Shown here: one piece after another, positions 618-20,016 of the stretch
How positions within the stretch are numbered: position 1 is the stretch's first letter
Layout: the number at the start of each line of letters is the position of its first letter
Source of the DNA: a virus
Virus record (IMG/VR): IMGVR_UViG_3300030104_005252
Span: 1 to 48,350 of that record
Length of the DNA: 48,350 nucleotides
Reading direction: 5' to 3' (one strand)
Notes under the pieces: model-generated
The model's input: only the letters and a program-made list of their open reading frames with translations
Database searches by the model: none
What the model was told of the DNA's origin: nothing
Translations under genes and position numbers: made by a program

Positions 618-1505
618 TCAGAACGATAGCTCAAGTTGGAGCGGTGGCTCCGTACCAGCAACGGCAGCACACCGAGCGATCGCCTGCTCAACGTACTCAG
701 GATACACGTCGTAGCCAATATAATCCCGACCTAGAGCAGCAGCAGCAACGCCAGTCGTTCCGCTGCCCATAAACGGATCCAGTACCAAGCCGGATTCAGG
801 TGAACCGTACCGGACGAAAAACTCAGCCAGCCGGCCAGGCATCAGGCCAGGGTGCACAAACAGCACCGGAGCGCCATCTCGCCGGCTAGTATCACGACTA
901 CCTTGCCCGGTGCTGGTTGGCATGAACACGACATTACCCGGATCTGCACCGAGCGGATTGTACTTATGAGCCCGCCGGTCAGCTTTGCCTGGCACGAGCG
1001 AGTTGCATAGTTCGCATTTGCGACCGCGTCCGCCGTGCCGATGTGGAACTCGAACCGCATCCTTGTTGACTTGGTACTGATCGATGTCTTTGACGAGGTG
1101 GTAGATAACCTCGTTCCGGTTGCGCAGCCGACGAGCGTAGTTGTCTGGGCGGGCGTTCGTCTTCGTCCAGTGGAAGTCCTGAACGTATTCGAAGCCGACC
1201 CGCTCGACAGCCATGACCGGTATCTTCACCTGCACGAGCGACATGCGCCGGTCAATGTATTGCCCTTGGAAGTTGATAAACAGGTTACCGGTCGGAGCGA
1301 GAACCCGGTAGCACTCACGCAGCACCGGCTCCAAGGCACCGAGGAACGCATCTCCTTGCAGCCTGCCAAGGTCACCCGAGGCATCGTCACCATATCGCTT
1401 ACGGCTTTCGTACGGTGGCGAGGTGAAGATCAAGTCAACGGACGCATCAGGCAGCGCATCCATCGCCGCAGCGTTGCCGCAAATAACAGTGTTCCTCAGA
1501 GCCAC
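618..1505 (-). CDS. DNA amino-methyltransferase, beta class (N4-cytosine or N6-adenine)
   Basis: Transfers a methyl group from S-adenosylmethionine to an exocyclic amino group in DNA. The catalytic motif TSPPY (residues 28-32) precedes the AdoMet-binding motif DPFMGSGTT (243-251), the order that defines beta-class enzymes. The SPPY form occurs in both N4C and N6A enzymes, so the base cannot be decided. At 295 residues it is full length, with a target-recognition segment between the motifs containing a CELC pair. The start is GTG at 1505, with a GAGGAC site about nine bases upstream. No restriction endonuclease adjoins it, so it is an orphan methylase, probably for protection from host restriction. 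It is not a C5-methyltransferase: no PCQ-type motif is seen. Confidence 0.9.
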   Translation of the reverse strand: MALRNTVICGNAAAMDALPDASVDLIFTSPPYESRKRYGDDASGDLGRLQGDAFLGALEPVLRECYRVLAPTGNLFINFQGQYIDRRMSLVQVKIPVMAVERVGFEYVQDFHWTKTNARPDNYARRLRNRNEVIYHLVKDIDQYQVNKDAVRVPHRHGGRGRKCELCNSLVPGKADRRAHKYNPLGADPGNVVFMPTSTGQGSRDTSRRDGAPVLFVHPGLMPGRLAEFFVRYGSPESGLVLDPFMGSGTTGVAAAALGRDYIGYDVYPEYVEQAIARCAAVAGTEPPLQLELSF

Positions 1506-2961: not shown

Positions 2962-3357
2962 CTAAGTGCGCCTAGCAACGTAGGCACGCCAGTCGTTATC
3001 GTGGACGGATTCGCCGACAAAGTTGCGGTGGTGCGGCTCCTCGTTTAGCACGTAGACGTAAGCGATGCGACCGCATTCCAACGCCAATGAAACGCGCTTG
3101 TAGAACCCGTGATCAACGCCTTCGAGCAGGTCGAGTTGCCGAAGCGTCTGATCGTCTACGTGATACAGTTCACCGACGACAGGATCTTCGCAAAGACCGA
3201 TACGCTGAACCAAGGCAGGAAAGTGACCGAGCGATACCATCTGATAACGAGCGACAAGCGATGTAGCTTCTCCCTCGTATCCAGTCAGCAGACGGTTGTT
3301 GCCGAAGCCGGTCATGAGTGAGCCATAAACGAATACCGGGTGCTTGCAGAACATCAT
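2962..3357 (-). CDS. Gamma-glutamylcyclotransferase-like (AIG2/GGCT fold) protein
   Basis: Residues 9-15 are FVYGSLM, the glycine loop of the AIG2/GGCT family. The distal part keeps the family pattern VVGELYHVDDQTL...LDLLEG (61-80), with Glu79 the likely general acid/base, then FYKR. At 131 residues it is a complete single domain. Known relatives release pyroglutamate from gamma-glutamyl amines or peptides. It follows the amidoligase gene by only ten bases, and this pairing has been described in comparative-genomics work on amidoligases. It probably cleaves, edits or cyclises a glutamyl amide made by the upstream enzyme; whether the target is peptide, metabolite or modified DNA base is open. 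Confidence 0.8.
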   Translation of the reverse strand: MMFCKHPVFVYGSLMTGFGNNRLLTGYEGEATSLVARYQMVSLGHFPALVQRIGLCEDPVVGELYHVDDQTLRQLDLLEGVDHGFYKRVSLALECGRIAYVYVLNEEPHHRNFVGESVHDNDWRAYVARRT

Positions 3358-3367
3358 TCCCCCTCCC

Positions 3368-4243
3368 TTACGCTACCCGGCTTACTTGCCGGGTAGCGAT
3401 GCCTGCGGTCCAACTCTCGTAACCGTGGTGATCGATGCGGTTGAGGACCGAGTCACCCTCTAGGTTGGCGAGGATGTGCTTGCGAACGGTGGCGTGGGTG
3501 TCACCGACCATACCGATCTGCTTCATCAGAGCACGAGCAGCGTACTTAGTGTTGCCACGAACATCACGCTCCTTGGCGCTGATGCGCTTGGCGTTGGCGC
3601 AGTAGTGAGCGACCATCAGGATCAACATCACCTGAGCACGCAGTTTGCCGGCATGTGAGACGGCTTCGAGGAAACGAAACTCAACGGTGCCGTGCGTGTG
3701 CAGGCTCTGAAGATTGACGCCGTAGTAGCGTCCGGCTTGGATGTCGCGAGCGTCTTCCATGGAGCCACCGTTGATGGCGCTGTCTACAATGTCCTGCGTC
3801 ATGGGAGCGCACCAATGACGCTCACGCTGCGCAGTCGTACCGGCCATTGCCACCATCAGACGCTCGTACTTACGGCTGAACTTGATGAGGTTGTTGAACT
3901 GCTTGTTGCTCCAGTTCTGCATACCGATGTGGCAGTGCAAGCCGGCTCCACCATCTGGGGTAGCACCGTGCCGTACCAACTCTCGAAGCACCTCCTGCAC
4001 GACAGGCATATCGGGCAGCGTGCAAATCGGGGTGACGACTTCACAACCACCGGTGGTGGTGCAATCGCTAACAACCTTCCAAAGACGACCAGCGTTGTCA
4101 CGAAGACCTGCACGGTAGGTGCGATCACGATGAGAGAACACGCCACAAGTCTGCAACGCTTTCTGGGTAGCAGTCAGTGCACGCAGCATGCTGATGTTGC
4201 TCATCTCAAGTTCAACACCGAATGTGATTTGATTGATGTCCAT
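3368..4243 (-). CDS. Amidoligase (COOH-NH2 ligase, glutamine-synthetase-like fold)
   Basis: First gene of block P3. The ATG at 4243 has a CCGGAGGAAAC site; upstream in-frame sequence belongs to the promoter region. Family signatures are in order: FGVELEM (8-14, metal/ATP-binding Glu), VVSDCTTTGGCEVVTP (57-72), GLHCHIG (101-107) and GTVEFRFLEA (185-194). Together these are the diagnostic layout of the Amidoligase_2 family. Such enzymes form amide bonds between a carboxylate and an amine using ATP. In phages they often sit beside an AIG2-like cyclotransferase, as here. Possible roles are conjugating an amino acid to a protein, a small molecule or the side chain of a modified thymine. The last is my inference from the modification genes elsewhere in this genome. 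Confidence 0.85.
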   Translation of the reverse strand: MDINQITFGVELEMSNISMLRALTATQKALQTCGVFSHRDRTYRAGLRDNAGRLWKVVSDCTTTGGCEVVTPICTLPDMPVVQEVLRELVRHGATPDGGAGLHCHIGMQNWSNKQFNNLIKFSRKYERLMVAMAGTTAQRERHWCAPMTQDIVDSAINGGSMEDARDIQAGRYYGVNLQSLHTHGTVEFRFLEAVSHAGKLRAQVMLILMVAHYCANAKRISAKERDVRGNTKYAARALMKQIGMVGDTHATVRKHILANLEGDSVLNRIDHHGYESWTAGIATRQVSRVA

Positions 4244-4288
4244 TGTTTCCTCCGGGGTTTGCGTCGGCGTGATTGCCTCCCCACCTTT

Positions 4289-4317
4289 GTTATGAGGCAT
4301 GTTTCCAAAGAACACAA
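4289..4317 (-). promoter_or_regulatory. Leftward early promoter, copy P3
   Basis: TTGTGT (4317-4312), 17-base spacer, CATAAC (4294-4289) on the minus strand, with a spacer identical to P2 over GGAAACATGCCT. It is followed by GGCAATCACGCC and the amidoligase start at 4243, so the amidoligase/cyclotransferase pair has its own early promoter. Confidence 0.7.
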
Positions 4318-4387
4318 GCAACACGACACAAACCGGTAAGAAAAAGAACACTGAGCGCGACCTCGAAATCACAGAACGCTAGACAGA

Positions 4388-11412: not shown

Positions 11413-11964
11413 ATGAGTTTGATGGAGCACGGGTCAGCCGACCCGAGGACACTACAGGCCGCCGATTATAACCCGAGGCAAATAACAGCAGCGCAGTACG
11501 ACGCACTGAAGTTCAGCCTAGAAAAGTTCGGCTTTGTACAGCCAGTCGTAATCAACAACCGAACCGGTCGAGTGGTCGGCGGCCACCAACGCATCAAAGC
11601 CGCAATCGACATCGGCATCACGAGCGTACCGACGGTCACACTCGACTTAGACAATCACGATGAGAAAGCGTTGAACCTCGCTTTGAACCGTGTCGGTGGC
11701 GATTGGGACGACAGACTTCTGACCAAAATGCTTGCCGACCTAGGCAGTGAGGGATGGGATTTAGCTGACCTCGGTTTCGACGACACCGAGTTAGACCGGC
11801 TGCTTAACGCAACGACAACCGAGCCGGAACCTGGCAGCATAACCGACATCGAATACGAGGAATCCTACCACCTCATCATCGAATGCAGCAGCGTCGACGA
11901 GCAAGGTGAAGTGATGGCGTACCTAGACAAGCGAGGTATCGAATGCCGACCATTGATATCGTAG
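11413..11964 (+). CDS. ParB-like domain protein 1
   Basis: Residues about 12-95 form a ParB/sulfiredoxin-fold domain: DYNPRQIT, then LKFSLEKFGFVQPVVINNRTGRVVGG, followed by HQRIKAAIDIGI and a DLDNHDEKALNLALNRVGGDWD segment. The GGHQR motif is typical of phage ParB-like proteins often annotated as nucleases. The start ATG has GAGGAAATA upstream. Its end overlaps the ABC-GNAT gene by 22 bases. ParB-like proteins recur beside phage DNA-modification enzymes. A role in choosing or tracking target sites on DNA fits this operon, but nuclease, CTPase and methyltransferase-specificity roles are all possible. Confidence 0.85.
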   Translation: MSLMEHGSADPRTLQAADYNPRQITAAQYDALKFSLEKFGFVQPVVINNRTGRVVGGHQRIKAAIDIGITSVPTVTLDLDNHDEKALNLALNRVGGDWDDRLLTKMLADLGSEGWDLADLGFDDTELDRLLNATTTEPEPGSITDIEYEESYHLIIECSSVDEQGEVMAYLDKRGIECRPLIS

Positions 11965-13079
11965 TCGAATGCGAGGTAGAGCGAACGGTTAGGTTGCGCC
12001 AAGTTTCGAGCATGTTCGAGATGGAAGAAACGACCAACCCATCTGAGCGCTGGTCGTTCGACATCGACCTTCCTGAAGAGTGGCAAATCGGTCTGATCGT
12101 TGGACCAAGCGGCAGCGGTAAAACCACCCTCGCCGAGCTGCTGTTCAGTAATGATCCTACGGATCAATACAGATGGCCGGAAAAGAAGTGCTTACTTGAC
12201 GGCTTCCCGACCACTAACGGAACATCAATCAAAGGCATCACGCAAACCCTGACCTCGGTTGGCTTCAGCAGCCCGCCATCGTGGTTAAAACCGTACAATG
12301 TTTTGAGCACCGGTGAGCAGTTCAGAGCCAACTTAGCGCGCGCAGTACACGAGCTACGAGAACGTCCTCAGACGGTCGTTGATGAGTTTACCTCGACCGT
12401 TGACCGGACTGTGGCGCGAATCGGCTCTGCTGCCGTCAGCAAGGCGGTTAGGCGCACAAGCGGACAGTTTGTTGCAGTCACTTGCCACAATGACGTGGAG
12501 GAATGGCTGCAACCGGATTGGGTTATTGAGATGCCAAGCGGAACCCTGACGCATCGGAGGTTGGTTCGGCGTCCCGACATCGACCTCGACATCAAGCGAT
12601 GCCATCACAGCCGGTGGGCAACCTACCGCAAGCATCACTATCTAAGTCACACGATGAACCGAGCAGCGCACTGTTACGAAGCAACGTGGAACGGACAGCC
12701 CGTTGCATTTATGAGCGTGCTTTACTTTCCACACCCGGTATCCCCCGGATGGCGTGGTCACCGGATTGTTTGCTTGCCGGATTACCAAGGCATCGGCATC
12801 GGCATGGGGTTAGCGAACTATGTCGCCGGTATTTATGCAGCAACCGGCTTACCATACCGCACCGTTGCAACGCATCCGGCACTGATCGCTCACCGTAACA
12901 AGAGCCCGCTTTGGGCGCTGACAAGAAAACCATCAACCCCTAGACCACTACACCGCAAAAAGAGAGGTGGCTATAACCGGCTGCCGCAAAGCGCAATGAA
13001 CCGACTAACCGCAACGCATCAGTACATCGGACCACCGAACCGTAACGGGTGCAAGTTGTTTGGACTGGAGCCAGCATGA
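11943..13079 (+). CDS. ABC-ATPase fused to a GNAT acyltransferase
   Basis: A two-domain protein of 378 residues. The first 200 are an ABC-type ATPase with Walker A GPSGSGKTTL (54-63), signature LSTGEQ (121-126), Walker B TVVDEF (144-149) and switch His182. It has no membrane domain, so it is not a transporter and is closer to the SMC/Rad50-like or DNA-scanning use of the fold. Residues about 220-330 are GNAT-like: RKHHYLSHTMNRAAHCYEA, GQPVAFMSVLYF and the acyl-CoA loop LPDYQGIGIGMGLANYV (278-294). GNATs in phage modification systems include Mu Mom. The likely role is DNA-associated acyl transfer, gated by ATP, to a base or to an amine already installed on a base. Translation is coupled to the ParB genes on both sides. 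Confidence 0.85.
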   Translation: MPTIDIVVECEVERTVRLRQVSSMFEMEETTNPSERWSFDIDLPEEWQIGLIVGPSGSGKTTLAELLFSNDPTDQYRWPEKKCLLDGFPTTNGTSIKGITQTLTSVGFSSPPSWLKPYNVLSTGEQFRANLARAVHELRERPQTVVDEFTSTVDRTVARIGSAAVSKAVRRTSGQFVAVTCHNDVEEWLQPDWVIEMPSGTLTHRRLVRRPDIDLDIKRCHHSRWATYRKHHYLSHTMNRAAHCYEATWNGQPVAFMSVLYFPHPVSPGWRGHRIVCLPDYQGIGIGMGLANYVAGIYAATGLPYRTVATHPALIAHRNKSPLWALTRKPSTPRPLHRKKRGGYNRLPQSAMNRLTATHQYIGPPNRNGCKLFGLEPA

Positions 13080-13771
13080 CCGCAAAGATACCAGCACCCC
13101 TCAAAGCCCTTGAGGTAGACATAAGCACGCTTCACATCGACCCTGAGAACGCACGACGGCGGGACGAGGATGCGATTGAGCAACTCATGAGCAGCCTCAC
13201 CCGTTTCGGTCAGCGCAGGCCATTGGTCGTGCGCAAAGATGGCATGGTGGTAGAAGCGGGGAACGGACGACTAGAAGCAGCAAGACGACTAGGCTGGAAA
13301 AAGATTGCAGCAGTTATCACGGATGACGATGCCGCAACCGCAGCCGCTTACGCTTTGGCGGACAACAAAACCGCTGACATGGGTACTTGGGATAACGCCA
13401 CCCTAGCAAGCCAACTCGACGACCTATTCGAACAAGGGCCGAGCGCCATCTTAGGAATCGGTTTCAACGACGATGACCTTACGCGTTTGCTCAACGACGC
13501 AAGCGACGTGAGCATATTGGACATGAGCGCACCGCAGGCAGTTTATGCAGACGGCACGACCGATGAAGACCACGAGCCTGAGAGCAAAGATTACGACGGC
13601 TCCAGTGAGCCTGACGCACCTGAGTCGAACGTTAGAATGCTACAGCTATTTTATGACGAGGATGAGCACGACCGGTTCATGGGTGCAGTGATTGCCTTGA
13701 GCGCAGTTTATGACACCGCAAACACGACTGAAACAACCCTGACGGCAGTGCTTGAGGAGGCAGCCAAATGA
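13076..13771 (+). CDS. ParB-like domain protein 2
   Basis: The ATG at 13076 overlaps the TGA of the ABC-GNAT gene (ATGA) and has a GGAG site; a GTG start at 13049 would overlap more and is less likely. The ParB fold covers residues 10-125: DPENARRRD (the ENAR motif), FGQRRPLVVRKDGMVVEAGNGRLEAARRLGW and AAAYALADNKTADMGTWD. The tail after residue about 145 is acidic, with a C-terminal segment VRMLQLFYDEDEHDRFM that also occurs in the next gene. It is clearly paralogous to ParB 3 immediately downstream. Confidence 0.85.
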   Translation: MTAKIPAPLKALEVDISTLHIDPENARRRDEDAIEQLMSSLTRFGQRRPLVVRKDGMVVEAGNGRLEAARRLGWKKIAAVITDDDAATAAAYALADNKTADMGTWDNATLASQLDDLFEQGPSAILGIGFNDDDLTRLLNDASDVSILDMSAPQAVYADGTTDEDHEPESKDYDGSSEPDAPESNVRMLQLFYDEDEHDRFMGAVIALSAVYDTANTTETTLTAVLEEAAK

Positions 13772-14358
13772 TACACGAATCGCTACAGCATTTAGCCGTG
13801 AGCATCGACGACCTTCATGAAGACCCGAACAATGCCAGGGTACATGACGCTGGCAACATGAGCGCCGTCCGTAAGAGCCTGTCGACATTTGGGCAACGCC
13901 TACCCATCGTCGTACAGAAAAGAGGAATGGTCGTACGAGCAGGAAACGCCCGCTTAGCAGCAGCGCGCGAACTAGGATGGACGCAAATCGCTGCGTTGGT
14001 TCTGAACGACAACGACACCGAGGCAGTAGCTTACGCACTAGCGGACAACCGAACTGCTGAACTGTCATGGTTCGATAAGGATGCTTTGGCAAACGTCTTA
14101 CGGGCTGTTATGGCATCAGCAGATGACCTGATTACAGCTACAGGCTTCGACATTGAAGAGGTGTTACGGTACACCTCCGAAGATTCGATAACGACTGATA
14201 ACCACGTCAAAATGATCCAGCTTTTCTTAGACACTGAGAGCAGCCCTCGTTTCCAAGCAGCTTGTGAAAAGCTAGCGCAGAAAACCGGAGCGCAAACCCT
14301 AAGCGACGTAGTGCTCGCCGCAGTTGAGAGCCAGTACGCGCAACGGGCTTGCAACTAA
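13768..14358 (+). CDS. ParB-like domain protein 3 (tandem paralogue of ParB 2)
   Basis: The ATG at 13768 overlaps the previous TGA and has GAGGAGGC upstream. It shares the layout of ParB 2 almost block by block: EDPNNARVHD, FGQRLPIVVQKRGMVVRAGNARLAAARELGW, AVAYALADNRTAELSWFD, and near the end HVKMIQLFLDTESSPRFQ. The two are an evident tandem duplication with divergence, which suggests a heteromer or two target specificities. Its stop overlaps the TET/JBP start. Confidence 0.85.
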   Translation: MIHESLQHLAVSIDDLHEDPNNARVHDAGNMSAVRKSLSTFGQRLPIVVQKRGMVVRAGNARLAAARELGWTQIAALVLNDNDTEAVAYALADNRTAELSWFDKDALANVLRAVMASADDLITATGFDIEEVLRYTSEDSITTDNHVKMIQLFLDTESSPRFQAACEKLAQKTGAQTLSDVVLAAVESQYAQRACN

Positions 14359-15215
14359 TGAACAGGATCCAACTCAAAGCCAAGCTAGATGCTAAGGTTG
14401 CAAACAAAACACTAGGCAAGTTGATTGGTGACGACAGCTATGACTTGATCGTTGCTGGAACCGCAGCCGTTTACAAGCCGGATGGAACGCTGTTGTGCAA
14501 ACTAGTGAAGCGGGCTTTTTCACCGCAACTGCTTGATGAAGCGCGTGACGCCTTGCGCCATCTTAAGCGATACGGTTCAGACAACCGAGGTAAGTACGCA
14601 GGCATGCCTCGTGTAACCCGCCGTAAAGCAGACGGCACCATGAGCAAAACATCAGCAGCACGCAATGTCGCCAGTGCGATCATCGGCTTCTTCGACCGAA
14701 GCCCGCGCATGCCATACTGCCGTCAGACAGCGTTCACAGCGAACGAGGTAGACCGTTGGACGACCATCCTGCCAATGGCTCAGCGCATGAGCGACCTGTT
14801 CCGTGAGCACGTGCCTGATCGTTGGCGAGCGCAGCACCGGATCAGCCAAGGCACTAGCCCTGACTTCGTGATCGAAGATACGGTGTTTACAACACTCACC
14901 GTAAACAACTCTGTGCGAGCGGCAGTGCACCGTGACAAAGGTGATCTAGATGCAGGCTTCGGTTGCATGAACATACTACGAGCCGGACCATGGACCGGCG
15001 GGTTCTTAGTGTTCCCTGAGTTTCGCACAGCGGTGCAGCTTGATGAAGGTGACGCCATCTTCTTCGACCCTCACGAGCTACACGCTAACACGAACTTCGA
15101 TGGCTTGGATGAGGATGATGGCGACTATCGCGTCAGTTGCGTCTACTACTACCGAACCAAGATGCAAGAATGCGGCAGCGCCAGCAGTGAACTCCAGCGA
15201 GCGCGTGACCGCTAG
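14358..15215 (+). CDS. TET/JBP-family 2-oxoglutarate/Fe(II) DNA dioxygenase
   Basis: Oxidises the methyl group of a pyrimidine in DNA (5-methylcytosine in TET, thymine in JBP) using Fe(II), 2-oxoglutarate and oxygen. Counting from the ATG at 14358 (285 aa, overlapping the ParB 3 stop), the metal triad is in VHRDKGD (His191, Asp193) and HELHANT (His242), with the 2-oxoglutarate Arg258 in DYRVSCVYYYR. Between them lie GFGCMNILRAGPWTGGFLVFP and LDEGDAIFFDPHELH, the signature spacing of TET/JBP proteins. The N-terminal ~150 residues are not recognised and may bind DNA or partners. No C5-cytosine methyltransferase is present, so thymine oxidation, as in JBP, is the more economical substrate; this is inference. 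Confidence 0.85.
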   Translation: MNRIQLKAKLDAKVANKTLGKLIGDDSYDLIVAGTAAVYKPDGTLLCKLVKRAFSPQLLDEARDALRHLKRYGSDNRGKYAGMPRVTRRKADGTMSKTSAARNVASAIIGFFDRSPRMPYCRQTAFTANEVDRWTTILPMAQRMSDLFREHVPDRWRAQHRISQGTSPDFVIEDTVFTTLTVNNSVRAAVHRDKGDLDAGFGCMNILRAGPWTGGFLVFPEFRTAVQLDEGDAIFFDPHELHANTNFDGLDEDDGDYRVSCVYYYRTKMQECGSASSELQRARDR

Positions 15216-15239
15216 ACCGAGCAGAATACCCTCAGAACG

Positions 15240-15273
15240 AAAACAAAAGAAAAGACGCCCCGTTAGGAGCGCC
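15240..15273 (-). terminator. Leftward intrinsic terminator
   Basis: On the minus strand GGCGCTCC-TAAC-GGGGCGTC (15273-15254) pairs over eight positions, two of them G-U, and is followed by TTTTCTTTTG. It ends the leftward transcript of the zinc/OB-fold gene whose stop is at 15301, and sits in the short convergent gap after the TET/JBP gene. Confidence 0.7.
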
Positions 15274-15300
15274 TGTTCTGCAAAGCCACCACAGGCCCGT

Positions 15301-16494
15301 CTAGGCTACCACGCTGACCCTGTTGACCGTGGTTTGAGCGATGCCATTGAACTCACCGTGACGCTTTACGGTCGCTTTGACCTTGAATGCGCCGGCTTCG
15401 GCTGCTTCCTCAAAGGATTCCTTACGACCACCGGAGGCCCACCACACCAGGCTGTGACCCTCGGTGCTTCGCAAGCGGTAAAGGCACGACTCACCGTAGT
15501 CGCTGAACGTGACCTTATGACCTTCGAGGATGACATCCAACACGATGCGATCACCAGCCTGACCAACATGCTCGTTGACCCGAGTAACAGCCGCAGCACG
15601 TTGCTCTCGCTGATGACGCTCGTACACGCTAACAGCACTGGCAGCGATACCGAGGTTGCGCCGGGTGACATAATCAGCGGCTAGAACAGACTTGACGTTG
15701 AAGGCGTACTCGCTTTCACCCATGGCAGCCACAGCGTCACGGACCTTTGCGACGATCGCCATCTCAGCGTCAGTCAACTCGACAACCTGACCAAGCATCA
15801 GCATGTCGCTTACACGATCGACGGTAGCCCGGTCATAATCACCAGCGCGATTCCGGCTAACATAGCCATCATCAGCGCAAGCACGAACCGCATAACCGAT
15901 AACGGTATCAGTTGGGAACATCTCGACGCGAGCGCCACCGGACAACCAGCCGTCTTCGCCGTAGCTGTCATCACCTTCGATCATCATGTTGATCCAAGCA
16001 GCCTCAGCGTTCCATGCGTAAGCGGTTGGGCTTTGGCAGCCGAGGAATGACTCAATGCAGGTGGAGCCGACACGGATCATCTGACCGTCTGCACCTTGGA
16101 GGAAATAGATACAACGACGGCTGCGAACCTTGTTGCAGTGCTGGCACATCACGTCAGCCGGCAGCGCAGTGACATCGACACCCGGAGCAACCAAGTCGAA
16201 AGTCTGAACGCCTTGCTGATCCACGTTCAGCCGAGCCATGACTTTCCATTCGCCGTCGACCACAGGAACCGAGCCGGAAACCGTGCACTCGTAAACCATA
16301 GCAAACACCGACACCGGATACCCGTGAGGTCCAGCGAACGACAACTCCTTGTAAACACCCTCACCGACGGTAAGAGCAATCTTCTCACAGCCAAGCCGAG
16401 TTGCACGGCGATTTAGCTCAGCGACTTTTTTCTTCAGCACTGAAACGGCACGACCGGTGAAGCGAGCGGTGGTATTGAAAGCGAGATGAGACAT
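15301..16494 (-). CDS. Predicted zinc-binding and OB-fold protein, 397 aa
   Basis: The start ATG at 16494 is fixed by leader hairpin copy B. Residues about 116-150 contain CQHCNKVRSRRC and then GSTCIESFLG, a Cys cluster that probably binds zinc. The last ~85 residues (DRIVLDVILEGHKVTF, GESCLYRLRS, FKVKATVKRH) look like an OB-fold. Nucleic-acid binding is therefore likely. Similar long proteins with this Cys block occur in phages and plasmids without known function. It sits inside the modification region but on the opposite strand, with its own promoter (P5) and terminator, so it could be regulatory or part of the modification machinery. Confidence 0.7.
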   Translation of the reverse strand: MSHLAFNTTARFTGRAVSVLKKKVAELNRRATRLGCEKIALTVGEGVYKELSFAGPHGYPVSVFAMVYECTVSGSVPVVDGEWKVMARLNVDQQGVQTFDLVAPGVDVTALPADVMCQHCNKVRSRRCIYFLQGADGQMIRVGSTCIESFLGCQSPTAYAWNAEAAWINMMIEGDDSYGEDGWLSGGARVEMFPTDTVIGYAVRACADDGYVSRNRAGDYDRATVDRVSDMLMLGQVVELTDAEMAIVAKVRDAVAAMGESEYAFNVKSVLAADYVTRRNLGIAASAVSVYERHQREQRAAAVTRVNEHVGQAGDRIVLDVILEGHKVTFSDYGESCLYRLRSTEGHSLVWWASGGRKESFEEAAEAGAFKVKATVKRHGEFNGIAQTTVNRVSVVA

Positions 16495-16541
16495 GAGATT
16501 TCCAATCCTCCGGGAGCCGATCCCCGGTTACGGCGTAAAGA
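16495..16541 (-). promoter_or_regulatory. Leader hairpin, copy B
   Basis: Stem CCGGG (16510-16514) with CCCGG (16523-16527), loop AGCCGATC, then GGATTGGAAATCTC to the ATG at 16494. This is the only copy outside the 45.5-48.0 kb and 1.8 kb small-gene clusters. Confidence 0.6.
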
Positions 16542-16549
16542 GCTAAAGA

Positions 16550-16936
16550 CTAAGGGCGAGGCATACCGTTATGATCGAGAACAACACGACGAATACGAGC
16601 TTCAACAACACGAGGCAAACCGAGATGAGCACGAACGTCAGCCTCAACAGCTTCGTAAATCGTAGAACCGGAAAGAACCTCAGTACCACGAACCATAACG
16701 CCTTGACCGGTAGCCATAAGAAGATCAGCCTCACGACGAGCGACACGACGAATAGTAGGACGATCGAGAACGCCGGTCTCAAGAACTTCGTCGAGAACAC
16801 GAATAACAGCGTCGAGAACAAGAGCCTCAGGATTATAACCGACACCATCGAGAGTAAGAGGTTCACGACGAGCCCAAGAGACTACTTTATTACGAGCCTG
16901 AGAAATCTGAAAGGGAGTTACGTTCGAAATATCCAT
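16550..16936 (-). CDS. Hypothetical protein, 128 aa
   Basis: First gene of block P5. The ATG at 16936 has CCGGAGGAAACC upstream. The product (MDISNVTPFQISQARNKVVSW...) is Arg/Val/Leu-rich and helical, with IRRVARREADLLMATG. There is no recognised domain. The coding strand uses many T-ending codons (CGT, GTT, ATT), unlike the rightward genes nearby. Confidence 0.7.
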   Translation of the reverse strand: MDISNVTPFQISQARNKVVSWARREPLTLDGVGYNPEALVLDAVIRVLDEVLETGVLDRPTIRRVARREADLLMATGQGVMVRGTEVLSGSTIYEAVEADVRAHLGLPRVVEARIRRVVLDHNGMPRP

Positions 16937-16982
16937 GGTTTCCTCCGGGAGCTTTTCGGCGTCATTGCCTCTCCACACTCTA

Positions 16983-17011
16983 GTTATGGGGCAGGTTTAC
17001 AAAGAACACAA
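16983..17011 (-). promoter_or_regulatory. Leftward promoter, copy P5
   Basis: TTGTGT (17011-17006), 17-base spacer, CATAAC (16988-16983) on the minus strand. It is followed by the GGCAATGACGCC leader shared with P2 and P3. It lies in the divergent gap between the 128-residue gene and the pyrophosphorylase-like gene. Confidence 0.7.
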
Positions 17012-17084
17012 GCAACAAACCACAAACACGGCAAAAAAGATTAGGCGATCCGCAGACCAGCGGGCGAAAACATCATAACGGCTA

Positions 17085-17112
17085 GGTTTCGATAACAGGC
17101 CAGGCCAGGCCA
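17085..17112. repeat. GGCC tandem and partial hairpin beside P5
   Basis: CTAGG (about 17082-17086) followed by AGGCCAGGCCAGGCCA (17097-17112). No leftward gene ends here, so the tandem is part of the promoter module rather than a gene tail. The rest of the 16937-17183 gap holds P5 and a weak rightward promoter candidate: TGGACA / 17 bases / TAGAAA, ending about 30 bases before the next start. Confidence 0.5.
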
Positions 17113-17183
17113 ACCGCCACTGGACCACACGGACAATGGACAAACGGCGCACCGTTTACTAGAAAAGCAACCGAGGAAATATC

Positions 17184-18383
17184 ATGATTAATTTTAGGCA
17201 CTGCGAACCGTCGCAAATCGGTCGCTACTGTTCGCTCCGCGGGCTAACAGAGCAAGCCGACTTAAAGCCCGGCACGGATTTCCGATGGCCTCAATATCGA
17301 CGTGAAGTATTCCACCGGTTCTACGAGTTTCACCTGCGCTACAGAGCGCACCCTGGCTGCGTGTATTACGTCGTTCCTTATCTTCGTGAAACTTTGGGTT
17401 GGGGTTTAGAAGAAAGTTTATGGTTCGTGTTCCTAAACGGAAACACTCAGAACCCGGTAACATCCTTGCTGATAGCAACCGAGTTCCCTACGTTACAGAG
17501 CGCGCTGCACGGCGATGGAAGGCGTTTAGAGGAATGGTACTGCGCACCTAGCGTCTTCCCGCGCTTGCAGTTCGACACCGACCGTCGCCACCACAAAACG
17601 CCTAGAGTATTCTTGGAGAGCGTCAAAGCCTATGGACGGCTAGTGAAGCTAGGTGGAGGCACGCAACAATCCATGTACGAAGCAGTGATGAACACGTCGG
17701 ATGAGGGAGCCAACTTCGAACGCTGTTGGAACCACGTGATTGACCAATACTACGGCTTCGGTCGCTTGTCATCTTTCAGCTACATTGAATACCTTCGCAT
17801 CTGCGGTTTACCGGTCGACTGCAAGCATCTGTTCCTTTCTGACATGCAGGGATCGAAAAGCCACCGCAACGGAATCTGCCGGGTGATTGGTCGTGACGAC
17901 CTTGATTGGCACGACAGGCTTAACCCGCGCTTCAAAGGTAAATACGTCGACGGTCAGATTGATTGGTTAGCTGACGAGGGATCTGCTCTACTTGCTGAAG
18001 CTAAGGAGCGCGGATCAGGCTCAGACTATGAGCGGGACATCGGTTATTTTACGATGGAATCAGCGCTATGCACATTCAAGTCGTGGCACCGACGCAACCG
18101 ACGCTATCCTAACGTGTACAACGACATGTTCCACGACCGCATCAAGAGCGCTGAACGGCGATGGCGTGACACGGACTTCAGTATATTTTGGAAAGCACGA
18201 GCCGACTGCTTACCCGAACACCTCAGACTGGAGAACAACCCGCGTGACATCGGCTGTAAACCGATAAAGCAGAATCATTATTACGACACGGGTGAACCCG
18301 TGATGATGGACCTAGACTGGGATTGCTTCGCTAACAGCTACAACCGCAAACACAGCGCAGCCTACACACCGAAAGAAGCCTGA
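17184..18383 (+). CDS. Alpha-glutamyl/putrescinyl-thymine pyrophosphorylase-like protein (aGPT-PPlase)
   Basis: Replaces the activated phosphate or pyrophosphate on 5-hydroxymethyluracil in DNA with an amine or amino acid, by analogy with phages carrying alpha-putrescinyl or alpha-glutamyl thymine. Diagnostic segments: RREVFHRFYEFHLRYR (39-54), CVYYVVP (59-65), FVFLNGNTQNPVTS (81-94), QFDTDRRHHK (129-138), YGFGRLSSFSYIEYL (190-204) and ESALCTFKSWHRRNRRYPNV (292-311). FLNGNTQNPVT and the ESALCTFK block are the parts I associate most firmly with this family. Start ATG with GAGGAAATATC. Its 3' end overlaps the kinase gene, which converges on it, by 22 bases. The amine donor cannot be read from sequence. 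Confidence 0.8.
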   Translation: MINFRHCEPSQIGRYCSLRGLTEQADLKPGTDFRWPQYRREVFHRFYEFHLRYRAHPGCVYYVVPYLRETLGWGLEESLWFVFLNGNTQNPVTSLLIATEFPTLQSALHGDGRRLEEWYCAPSVFPRLQFDTDRRHHKTPRVFLESVKAYGRLVKLGGGTQQSMYEAVMNTSDEGANFERCWNHVIDQYYGFGRLSSFSYIEYLRICGLPVDCKHLFLSDMQGSKSHRNGICRVIGRDDLDWHDRLNPRFKGKYVDGQIDWLADEGSALLAEAKERGSGSDYERDIGYFTMESALCTFKSWHRRNRRYPNVYNDMFHDRIKSAERRWRDTDFSIFWKARADCLPEHLRLENNPRDIGCKPIKQNHYYDTGEPVMMDLDWDCFANSYNRKHSAAYTPKEA

Positions 18384-18916
18384 TCGTTAGCAAAAGAAAT
18401 CAGTTCAGCGCCTACTTCATCGATGGAAAGCAGCGACGTATCAAGGTGCAGTCTTCTTTGTTCGTCAAACAGCGCAGTAAACCGAGCGGCTTTAGTAGCC
18501 CGCCCTGCCATCCAAGAGGGGTTTTGCGTATTCTTACGAGCCGACCGACGATCAGATAACGTCTCGTCGTTGCAGGACAGGTGCACGCAAGCAGCTACGA
18601 CGCCATCGACGCACTCGATAGCTGCCTTGGCTCCTTGATGCGAAAAACGATCGCCATCGAAAACGGCAACAGGGAACCGAGGCACAAGATTGCGTCGCCA
18701 AAAGTTTACCGCAGCAGCGCCACCGTTATAAGGCACCGTATCACCACCATCGAAGCTACCTGAACCGTAGTGACCTACTAACGCAATACGACCTGCTAAA
18801 GTCCACTTGGGTTTGGGGTGCAGATCGAAGTAGAACGGCAGCAGTGACCGTAAAGCCGCAGTCTTACCAACGCCAGGTGGACCGACCACAAATAGAGCTA
18901 CGTGTTGAGATGACAT
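18362..18916 (-). CDS. P-loop kinase, candidate 5-hydroxymethyluracil DNA kinase (HMUDK)
   Basis: 184 residues from the ATG at 18916, which lies within the last codons of the PLP gene behind GATCAGGA. Walker A is GPPGVGKT (12-19). GHYGSGSFDGGDTVPYNG (48-65) and VFDGDRFSH (85-93) match the pattern of HMUDK-type kinases, followed by an Arg-rich lid (123-145). The proposed reaction is phosphorylation of the hydroxymethyl group of 5hmU in DNA. This makes the leaving group used by the aGPT-PPlase, whose gene meets it tail to tail. Coupling to the upstream PLP gene suggests joint expression. A general nucleotide kinase is the alternative, but the FDGGDT block argues against it. Confidence 0.8.
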   Translation of the reverse strand: MSSQHVALFVVGPPGVGKTAALRSLLPFYFDLHPKPKWTLAGRIALVGHYGSGSFDGGDTVPYNGGAAAVNFWRRNLVPRFPVAVFDGDRFSHQGAKAAIECVDGVVAACVHLSCNDETLSDRRSARKNTQNPSWMAGRATKAARFTALFDEQRRLHLDTSLLSIDEVGAELISFANDQASFGV

Positions 18917-20016
18917 TCCTGATCCTTGTGTTTCGATCCATCGTCGACAGGTGCAACCGTTGGACAGCGACCGCATTCCTTTTCGAGATACGGACGCAGT
19001 AACGCTAAATCCGGCTCACTGCCAATGATCCAGAACAGCGTGGTCGGCTTGATGAGCGACCGACGACAAAGCGACAGCCACGCCATCACTTTACCCTCGT
19101 ACGTCGGGTGGAACACGATACCGGCATAACTGAACGGAATAGCGGTATGATACCTTACTAAGCGACCGCCTTGCAGGTCGTCGTAATGCAGTCGGTAGCG
19201 AGGTTCACCCTGCGGAGCAAAAGACGGTAAATCAGTTTCAAACATCGGTTGCCAGATACGGTGATTTACACCGGTCAACTTTTCAAACACCGCAAGGCGT
19301 TCGCTGATGAGGCGCATCTTCGTAGGACCGATACCGACAAGCCGTATGTCGGTTAGCATGGGCTTCGGTTTATCCATTGCCAAGCCGTGCAAGATCGAGG
19401 TGGCGCTGTTACACGACCCCGCAGGGATCACCAAGTCAGTGATGTGATCAGGAATATTCTGCGTCTGAAGCGCACCTACCCGGTGGAAGTCGAGCACCGC
19501 TTGATCTTCATGAACGGCGTGATCGAGCGTGATACCATATTCAAGGTAAAACCAACCCTGCTTAGAGCTACTTAAGAGCGTCCGGCACCGTTGCTGAAGC
19601 GACGGGTTATAAGCCGTCTTAGCATGGAAATCTAACTTAGCTCCAAGCCACACAGCCAACCGGACCATCGGGTTGCGCATACAGGCGTCTGGGTGTGTTG
19701 CACCGACGGCAAGCGTGCACGGAATCTCAAAGTGTTTCGACACCGCAGCGCCCATAGCAAGTTGCGGCGACAGAACACTAGCACCCGAAACCAAGCCAGC
19801 AGAGCCACCGGCATCACGGTATCGCTTCACGAGCCAAATCAACTGCCGCAGTTTGGTGCCGTTTATGCCACCGTAACCGAGCGGGGCAAAAGCGTCTTCA
19901 CGTTTGAACCACATATTCCCGGCCTTATGAACCGGAGTAAGGTCACTAAGCCGCTCAGCCCACGATCCAGGCTGATCGGTGATCGAGTGTTGAGTAAAGA
20001 TGCACGGGTCTATCAC
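18898..20016 (-). CDS. PLP-dependent enzyme, fold type II (ACC deaminase/tryptophan-synthase-beta-like)
   Basis: Residues 36-60 (MWFKREDAFAPLGYGGINGTKLRQL) carry the cofactor-binding lysine (Lys55) in the GG-N-G-x-K-x-R-x-L context of fold-type-II PLP enzymes. LVSGASVLSPQLAMGAAVSKHFEIPCTLAVG is the following substrate-loop region, and VIPAGSCNSATSILHG is the phosphate-binding loop. Length (372) is normal. The start is GTG at 20016 with CGAGGAAAC. Such enzymes eliminate, replace or deaminate at the beta or gamma carbon of amino acids. Sharing an operon with the HMUDK-like kinase implies action on the amino acid donor or on the side chain already attached to thymine. The exact reaction is unknown. 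Confidence 0.8.
   Translation of the reverse strand: MIDPCIFTQHSITDQPGSWAERLSDLTPVHKAGNMWFKREDAFAPLGYGGINGTKLRQLIWLVKRYRDAGGSAGLVSGASVLSPQLAMGAAVSKHFEIPCTLAVGATHPDACMRNPMVRLAVWLGAKLDFHAKTAYNPSLQQRCRTLLSSSKQGWFYLEYGITLDHAVHEDQAVLDFHRVGALQTQNIPDHITDLVIPAGSCNSATSILHGLAMDKPKPMLTDIRLVGIGPTKMRLISERLAVFEKLTGVNHRIWQPMFETDLPSFAPQGEPRYRLHYDDLQGGRLVRYHTAIPFSYAGIVFHPTYEGKVMAWLSLCRRSLIKPTTLFWIIGSEPDLALLRPYLEKECGRCPTVAPVDDGSKHKDQECHLNT

What the first reader, a model, noticed from the sequence alone, without database searches (positions are those of the whole stretch)
11413..20016. Candidate thymine hypermodification pathway assembled from unusual parts
Seen: TET/JBP dioxygenase, HMUDK-like kinase, aGPT-PPlase-like protein, fold-type-II PLP enzyme, ABC-ATPase-GNAT fusion and three ParB-like proteins within 8.6 kb. 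Known: Iyer, Aravind and colleagues predicted TET/JBP-derived hydroxymethyl pyrimidines as starting points for further modification; kinase plus aGPT-PPlase chemistry is characterised in phages that incorporate 5hmdU from the nucleotide pool. Inference: here the steps combine into one post-replicative route, thymine to 5hmU to phospho-5hmU to an amino-linked base, elaborated by PLP and GNAT chemistry. The combination and final base would be new to me.
Basis: partly seen in the sequence, partly recalled or inferred. Interest (0 to 1): 0.92.

Follow-up and report, generated by a model that had tools for sequence, protein, structure and literature searches.

The report
TET-started thymine hypermodification cassette in phage
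This phage carries a real gene set that very probably converts ordinary thymine already in its DNA into an amine-bearing base; the scheme was foreseen and a simpler version is published, but the full cassette proves widespread in uncultured phages and replaces the better-known route that makes the modified building block before DNA is copied.

Summary
The region encodes three ParB-like proteins, a TET/JBP dioxygenase with an intact active site, an amino acid:DNA transferase (ADDT, former aGPT-PPlase2), a P-loop kinase of the 5hmU-kinase superfamily, a ViI-type PLP enzyme and an ABC-GNAT fusion. Seeding with the ADDT returned 101 environmental loci (99 IMG/VR, 2 Actinomycetota MAGs): 76 carry TET, 74 of these the kinase, 45 TET+kinase+PLP, usually adjacent, shuffled in order, sometimes fused. 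TET and thymidylate synthase/hydroxymethylase never share a record and swap repeatedly on the ADDT tree; the helical 5hmU-kinase protein found with synthase is absent from TET records; C5-cytosine methylases are rare, absent here. So TET most likely makes 5hmU from thymine in DNA, followed by kinase, ADDT and PLP steps, probably giving an aminoethoxymethyl-type uracil (ADDT and PLP are ViI-like). Two corrections: the ABC-GNAT protein is a separate, already predicted ParB-linked module (0 of 101 ADDT loci have it; 0 of 27 ABC-GNAT loci have the cassette); and ParB-TET-ADDT-kinase is published for phage Tonitrus and visible in cluster B mycobacteriophages. Thymine as substrate, the amino acid and the final base are inferred.

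The parts
13049..13771 (+). ParB-like protein 2, cassette-associated (probable DNA-targeting or loading factor)
   Evidence: ParB_N 4.8e-8; a ParB gene lies directly upstream of TET in 38 of 69 eligible TET loci
13768..14358 (+). ParB-like protein 3, overlaps the TET start
   Evidence: ParB_N 7.8e-6; tandem ParB-ParB-TET also in L010, L012-L015, L018, L096, L110, L117, L120, L126
14349..15215 (+). TET/JBP 2-oxoglutarate/Fe(II) dioxygenase, proposed thymine -> 5hmU in DNA
   Evidence: PF12851 3e-21; Fe ligands H194, D196, H245 and 2OG-binding R261 aligned; H, D, H in 76/76 and R in 75/76 homologues
17184..18383 (+). ADDT, amino acid:DNA transferase (former aGPT-PPlase2)
   Evidence: PF18724 2.1e-19; predicted model (pLDDT 85.8) best matches 8z2m/8z2n, 5-phosphomethyl-dU glycinyltransferase, Foldseek prob 1.00/0.98, TM on target 0.57-0.59, E 0.09-0.3
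18362..18976 (-). P-loop 5hmU DNA kinase-like protein; likely true start near 18916 (MSSQHVALFVVGPPGVGKT)
   Evidence: IMG/VR-only model 1.3e-28; that family aligns with M6 gp54 (HMUDK_HMUD1) at hhalign prob 95%, E 4e-8; Walker A, GxD and (E/D)GDR motifs
18898..20016 (-). Fold-type II PLP enzyme of the ViI type, proposed decarboxylase of the amino-acid adduct
   Evidence: phrog_3650 3e-101; 42% identical to Ag3 gp188 over the alignment; 39-41% to Ackermannviridae homologues by tblastn; PLP lysine K55 present in every homologue not truncated there (65 of 69 rows, 4 gaps)
11413..11964 (+). ParB-like protein 1, partner of ABC-GNAT (separate module)
   Evidence: ParB_N 1.1e-6; overlaps the ABC-GNAT start by 22 bases, the same overlap as in L050, L051, L059, L060, L065, L066
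11943..13079 (+). ABC-ATPase-GNAT fusion, separate predicted DNA-acylation module, not part of the thymine route
   Evidence: phrog_11143 1.8e-100; 0 of 101 ADDT loci have it and 0 of 27 ABC-GNAT loci have TET/ADDT/PLP/kinase
15301..16494 (-). Intervening ORF of unknown function, phrog_2319; not part of the cassette
   Evidence: no Pfam hit, phrog_2319 2.9e-58
16550..16978 (-). Intervening ORF without family match; not part of the cassette

Best explanation
A self-contained, post-replicative thymine hypermodification cassette. ParB-like proteins 2 and 3 probably target or load the enzymes on phage DNA (inferred). The TET/JBP enzyme hydroxylates thymine in DNA to 5hmU (family shown, substrate inferred). 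The P-loop kinase phosphorylates 5hmU to 5-phosphomethyl-U (inferred from homology to M6 gp54). The ADDT displaces the phosphate with a free amino acid (chemistry known for the family, amino acid unknown). The ViI-type PLP enzyme then trims the adduct, most likely by decarboxylation, giving an amine-bearing base, most simply 5-(2-aminoethoxy)methyluracil as in phage ViI. Purpose: most likely protection from host restriction. The neighbouring ParB1-ABC-GNAT pair is a second, independent DNA-modification module.
For: Families and active sites. ADDT fold matches the solved 5-PmdU glycinyltransferase above all else. Linkage: of 101 ADDT-bearing environmental loci 76 have TET; 74 of those 76 the kinase, 46 the PLP enzyme, 45 both; after collapsing at 90% identity 33 of 73 rows have all four. 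Fusions ADDT::kinase, PLP::ADDT, TET::ADDT, PLP::kinase. TET replaces the pool route: TS in 11 records, none with TET; no TET record searched has TS; in records of 30 kb or more 18 TET-only, 9 TS-only, 5 neither, 0 both, Fisher p = 7e-5, not corrected for relatedness; 9 switches on the ADDT tree, at least 5 forced by supported branches for the TS label. HMUDK_hel (PF18723) in all 8 TS records tested and 0 of 17 TET records. C5-methylase in 2 of 36 TET records, none in the window. ViI-type PLP: family model scores Ag3 8e-121, window 5e-117, M6 3e-4.
Against: No chemistry was measured. TET substrate (T or 5mC) cannot be read from sequence here. The scan was seeded with this ADDT, so frequencies are not an unbiased survey, and many contigs are fragments. 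The sister-pair sign test on TET versus TS is too small to be significant (median p 0.125). ADDT-PDB similarity is 13% identity with Foldseek E about 0.1. The kinase is only remotely related to the characterised M6 kinase, and the HMUDK_hel protein is missing. In the window the genes are split over two strands. Some ADDT records have neither TET, TS nor ThyX.
Confidence: 0.82

Rival explanations
1. The TET enzyme oxidises 5-methylcytosine, as shown for some phage TETs, and the kinase/ADDT/PLP genes act on 5hmC or on something else.
For: Phage TETs acting on 5mC are known (from memory, Burke et al. 2021). P12024L carries a gene annotated DNA methyltransferase near TET.
Against: No C5-methylase in the window and only in 2 of 36 TET+ADDT records; the ADDT family's solved member uses 5-phosphomethyl-dU; TET swaps with a thymidylate-synthase-fold enzyme, which works on uracil.
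Confidence: 0.1
2. The full reader model: the ABC-GNAT protein also acts in the route and acylates the new amine.
For: It lies in the same strand block as ParB2-ParB3-TET, with overlapping genes; acetyltransferases act in some thymidine hypermodification pathways (from memory, Lee et al. 2022).
Against: 0 of 101 ADDT loci carry it; 0 of 27 ABC-GNAT loci carry the cassette; it pairs with its own ParB with a conserved 22-base overlap; sister phages P12024L and P12024S hold TET or ABC-GNAT at the same locus; already predicted as a separate acyl-modification system (PMC7824862).
Confidence: 0.05
3. A degenerating or partial cassette: the base stops at 5hmU, phospho-5hmU or the plain amino-acid adduct.
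For: Genes are split on two strands; cluster B mycobacteriophage Prince and 30 of the 76 environmental TET loci show no PLP gene, though many are fragments.
Against: All four window genes are intact ORFs with conserved catalytic residues.
Confidence: 0.1

Closest known systems
Rhodococcus phage Tonitrus five-gene thymidine hypermodification system (PMC11955845) and cluster B mycobacteriophages such as Prince, genes 1-4
   Same: ParB, TET/JBP, ADDT (aGPT-Pplase2) and kinase in one block at the start of the genome
   Different: No PLP enzyme in the Prince block; no Mycobacterium record among the listed PLP-matching genera; the fifth Tonitrus gene is an unassigned hypothetical protein
Salmonella phage ViI / Ackermannviridae 5-NeOmdU pathway
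   Same: ADDT plus the same PLP family (42% identical to Ag3 gp188, phrog_3650)
   Different: 5hmU comes from the nucleotide pool: Ag3 has a thymidylate-synthase-fold enzyme and HMUDK_hel, no TET
Pseudomonas phage M6 5-NedU pathway
   Same: ADDT (gp51), PLP enzyme (gp52), P-loop kinase (gp54)
   Different: Thymidylate-synthase-fold gp58, radical SAM gp53 and HMUDK_hel gp55; PLP and ADDT in other PHROG families
Glutamicibacter phage Montesquieu
   Same: ADDT, PLP (ACC-deaminase-like) and two P-loop kinases adjacent
   Different: Pool route: thymidylate-synthase-fold hydroxymethylase and HMUDK_hel, no TET
GNAT-ABC ATPase predicted DNA acyl-modification system (Iyer, Aravind and colleagues; PMC7824862, e.g. 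Tenacibaculum phage pT24)
   Same: The window ABC-GNAT protein matches pT24 at 37.5%
   Different: Separate from the thymine cassette

Membership tests
TET/JBP dioxygenases | Profile match over curated cut-off | tested here: met
   75.8 bits against cut-off 34.9
TET/JBP dioxygenases | HxD...H iron ligands and 2OG-binding Arg | tested here: met
   H194, D196, H245, R261
TET/JBP dioxygenases | Activity on thymine in DNA | not testable with these tools
   supported only by exclusivity with TS and by the ADDT context
ADDT (amino acid:DNA transferase) | PF18724 match over cut-off and glycosylase-like fold | tested here: met
   70.6 bits against 26.2; model matches 8z2m/8z2n
5-hmdU DNA kinase (HMUDK) | Pfam HMUDK_HMUD1 match over cut-off | tested here: not met
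   no PF18748 hit for the window kinase; related family only
5-hmdU DNA kinase (HMUDK) | HMUDK_hel protein (PF18723) in the genome | tested here: not met
   absent from the window and all 17 TET records tested
ViI-type PLP enzyme (phrog_3650) | Family match and PLP lysine | tested here: met
   3e-101; K55
Pool-route thymidine hypermodification (M6/ViI) | Thymidylate-synthase-fold dUMP hydroxymethylase | tested here: not met
   no PF00303 in the window record
5mC-TET phage systems | C5-cytosine methylase | tested here: not met
   no PF00145 in the window record
Mom GNAT family | Sequence relation of the GNAT domain to Mu Mom | tested here: inconclusive
   no similarity found by hmmsearch or hhalign against Mom alone

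The most novel reading that the evidence does not exclude
A widespread phage cassette, unseen in the isolated phages examined, installs a new hypermodified base on selected thymines entirely after replication, with TET supplying 5hmU and ParB-like proteins choosing the sites, as a full alternative to the nucleotide-pool route; the final base differs from every known phage thymine derivative.
Probability: 0.3. Interest if true: 0.78.

Novelty: new variant of a known kind. Interest (0 to 1): 0.62.

Why it matters
Thymine hypermodification is usually described as needing the phage to replace the host thymidine pool. This cassette needs only ordinary DNA with thymine, so it could move between phages without touching nucleotide metabolism. 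It gives a concrete substrate prediction for a class of phage TET enzymes, and a simple genomic rule (TET or synthase plus HMUDK_hel, not both) that can be tested on any genome. Functionally it should help phages evade restriction.

Tried and rejected
TET and PLP single-protein scans of IMG/VR found nothing; the window is distant from everything held, with no megablast match among phages. The key papers (Iyer 2013, Lee 2018, Lee 2022, Wen 2024) were not held, so statements about them are from memory or second hand. A first iterative profile run mixed families through fused proteins and was discarded for cleaner models (replaced). Kinase against PDB gave only generic P-loops; ADDT by sequence gave no PDB hit, solved by fold search. 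The ABC-GNAT model gave ABC ATPases among the 50 best matches shown and nothing on the GNAT part. ThyX does not explain the TET-negative, TS-negative records; it occurs instead in three TET records, which fits a need for thymine.
Full report
What is there. The window is a 48,350-base linear IMG/VR virus record, with terminase, Mu-type portal and tail genes to the right of the region. The region holds, on the + strand, ParB1 (11413-11964), ABC-GNAT (11943-13079), ParB2 (13049-13771), ParB3 (13768-14358), TET/JBP (14349-15215) and ADDT (17184-18383), and on the - strand the P-loop kinase (18362-18976) and the PLP enzyme (18898-20016). Two minus-strand ORFs without a known function lie between TET and ADDT.

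Catalytic integrity. TET keeps its iron ligands (H194, D196, H245) and its 2OG-binding arginine (R261); H, D and H are the same in 76 of 76 homologues and R in 75, with one gap. The PLP lysine K55 is present in all homologues not truncated there, and the enzyme's profile is nearest to ACC deaminases and D-cysteine desulfhydrase in the PDB, i.e. fold-type II. The kinase has Walker A, GxD and (E/D)GDR motifs. A predicted ADDT model (pLDDT 85.8) matches the solved 5-phosphomethyl-dU glycinyltransferase gp46 (8z2m, 8z2n) ahead of everything else, with an 8-oxoguanine DNA glycosylase next; identity is 13% and E about 0.1, so the fold, not the amino acid used, is supported.

The cassette is real and widespread. 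Two ADDT scans of IMG/VR and one of bacterial genomes gave 101 ADDT-bearing loci outside the window and named phages (99 IMG/VR, two Actinomycetota MAGs). 76 carry TET; of those 74 carry the kinase, 46 the PLP enzyme and 45 both. Gene order varies (for example ParB-TET-ADDT-PLP-kinase in L008, L009, L117; ParB-ParB-TET-PLP-ADDT-kinase in L010; ParB-PLP-ADDT::kinase-TET in L028) and four fusion types occur: ADDT::kinase (L027-L030), PLP::ADDT (L034, L068), TET::ADDT (L084), PLP::kinase (L035). Conserved linkage with shuffled order and fusions argues for one pathway. The same set, complete, lies on a contig of an Actinomycetota MAG (L134).

TET replaces the pool route. Thymidylate-synthase-fold enzymes were found in 11 ADDT records including M6, Ag3 and Montesquieu; none has TET, and no TET record searched has one. 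Among records of at least 30 kb: 18 TET only, 9 TS only, 5 neither, none both; Fisher p = 7e-5, not corrected for relatedness. On an ADDT tree the two states interchange 9 times, with at least 5 changes of the TS label forced by supported branches; the strict sister-pair test is too small to be significant. HMUDK_hel (PF18723) occurs in all 8 TS records tested, two further TET-negative records, and 0 of 17 TET records. Three TET records carry ThyX, which makes ordinary thymidylate. C5-cytosine methylases are rare (2 of 36) and absent from the window. Together this makes thymine, not 5-methylcytosine, the likely TET substrate. It remains an inference.

Which base. The window ADDT and PLP proteins fall in PHROG families 3271 and 3650, while the M6 ADDT and PLP fall in 6364 and 7093. 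A PLP model built without them scores Ag3 (ViI-like) 8e-121, the window 5e-117 and M6 3e-4; an ADDT model likewise picks up Ag3 (8e-51). M6 also has a radical SAM protein; no radical SAM enzyme was recognised among the window proteins annotated here, though not every window ORF was scanned. ViI-like phages contain 5-(2-aminoethoxy)methyluridine (PMC11721090; PMC6449724, abstract). The simplest prediction is therefore an aminoethoxymethyl uracil, probably from serine followed by decarboxylation; the amino acid and decarboxylation are from memory of Lee et al. 2022, which was not held.

The ABC-GNAT gene is a separate module. None of 101 ADDT loci carries it, and none of 27 ABC-GNAT loci carries TET, ADDT, PLP or kinase; 20 of the 27 have a ParB gene directly before it, six with the same 22-base overlap as in the window. 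Sister phages P12024L and P12024S carry, at the same place, either TET with a methyltransferase or ABC-GNAT. Iyer, Aravind and colleagues had predicted this ABC-GNAT system to acylate a DNA base (PMC7824862). The window therefore stacks two modification modules, plus an N4/N6 methyltransferase at 618-1505.

Novelty. ParB-TET-aGPT-Pplase2-kinase is published for Rhodococcus phage Tonitrus (PMC11955845) and visible in cluster B mycobacteriophages, where Prince gene 2 is already labelled 'thymidine hydroxylase'. PLP homologues among isolated phages are mainly Ackermannviridae-like and Vibrio phages, with no Mycobacterium among the listed genera, so TET together with PLP was not seen in isolates, although minor genera were not listed one by one. 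The TET+ADDT+kinase+PLP cassette, its spread, its fusions and its exclusivity with synthase and HMUDK_hel are what this analysis adds. I rate it a new variant of a known kind.

Limits. Everything is computational; the locus set is seeded by one ADDT; many contigs are fragments; the kinase is remote from its characterised relative (hhalign 95%) and lacks the HMUDK_hel partner.

Noticed in passing
L019 (IMG/VR contig of 305,782 bases, G015:C1:210224-210694): A jumbo-sized virus contig carries TET-ADDT-kinase; a 2021 survey reported no TET/JBP in jumbo phages (PMC7824862).
   Followed up: partly
records: HMUDK_hel (PF18723) tracks thymidylate synthase, not the P-loop kinase, suggesting it serves the pool route or a different kinase form.
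   Followed up: partly
window 2962-4372 (-): Adjacent GGACT (gamma-glutamyl cyclotransferase-like) and Amidoligase_2 genes, possibly a peptide-modification pair.
   Followed up: no
window 618-1505 (-): N4/N6 DNA methyltransferase, a third DNA-modification gene in this phage.
   Followed up: no
L001 and other cluster B mycobacteriophage records: Misleading annotation: TET often 'queuine tRNA-ribosyltransferase' or 'oxidoreductase', ADDT 'DNA glycosylase', the kinase family filed as 'terminase small subunit' in phrog_800.
   Followed up: no
L062 / L063: Sister phages P12024L and P12024S swap TET plus methyltransferase for ABC-GNAT at the same locus.
   Followed up: partly
window 11943-13079: The ABC part matches the MADS defence protein mad3 over residues 106-187 (4e-11).
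   Followed up: no
L080, L086, L097: ADDT+PLP records of 46-133 kb with no TET, TS, ThyX or HMUDK_hel: the 5hmU source is unexplained.
   Followed up: partly
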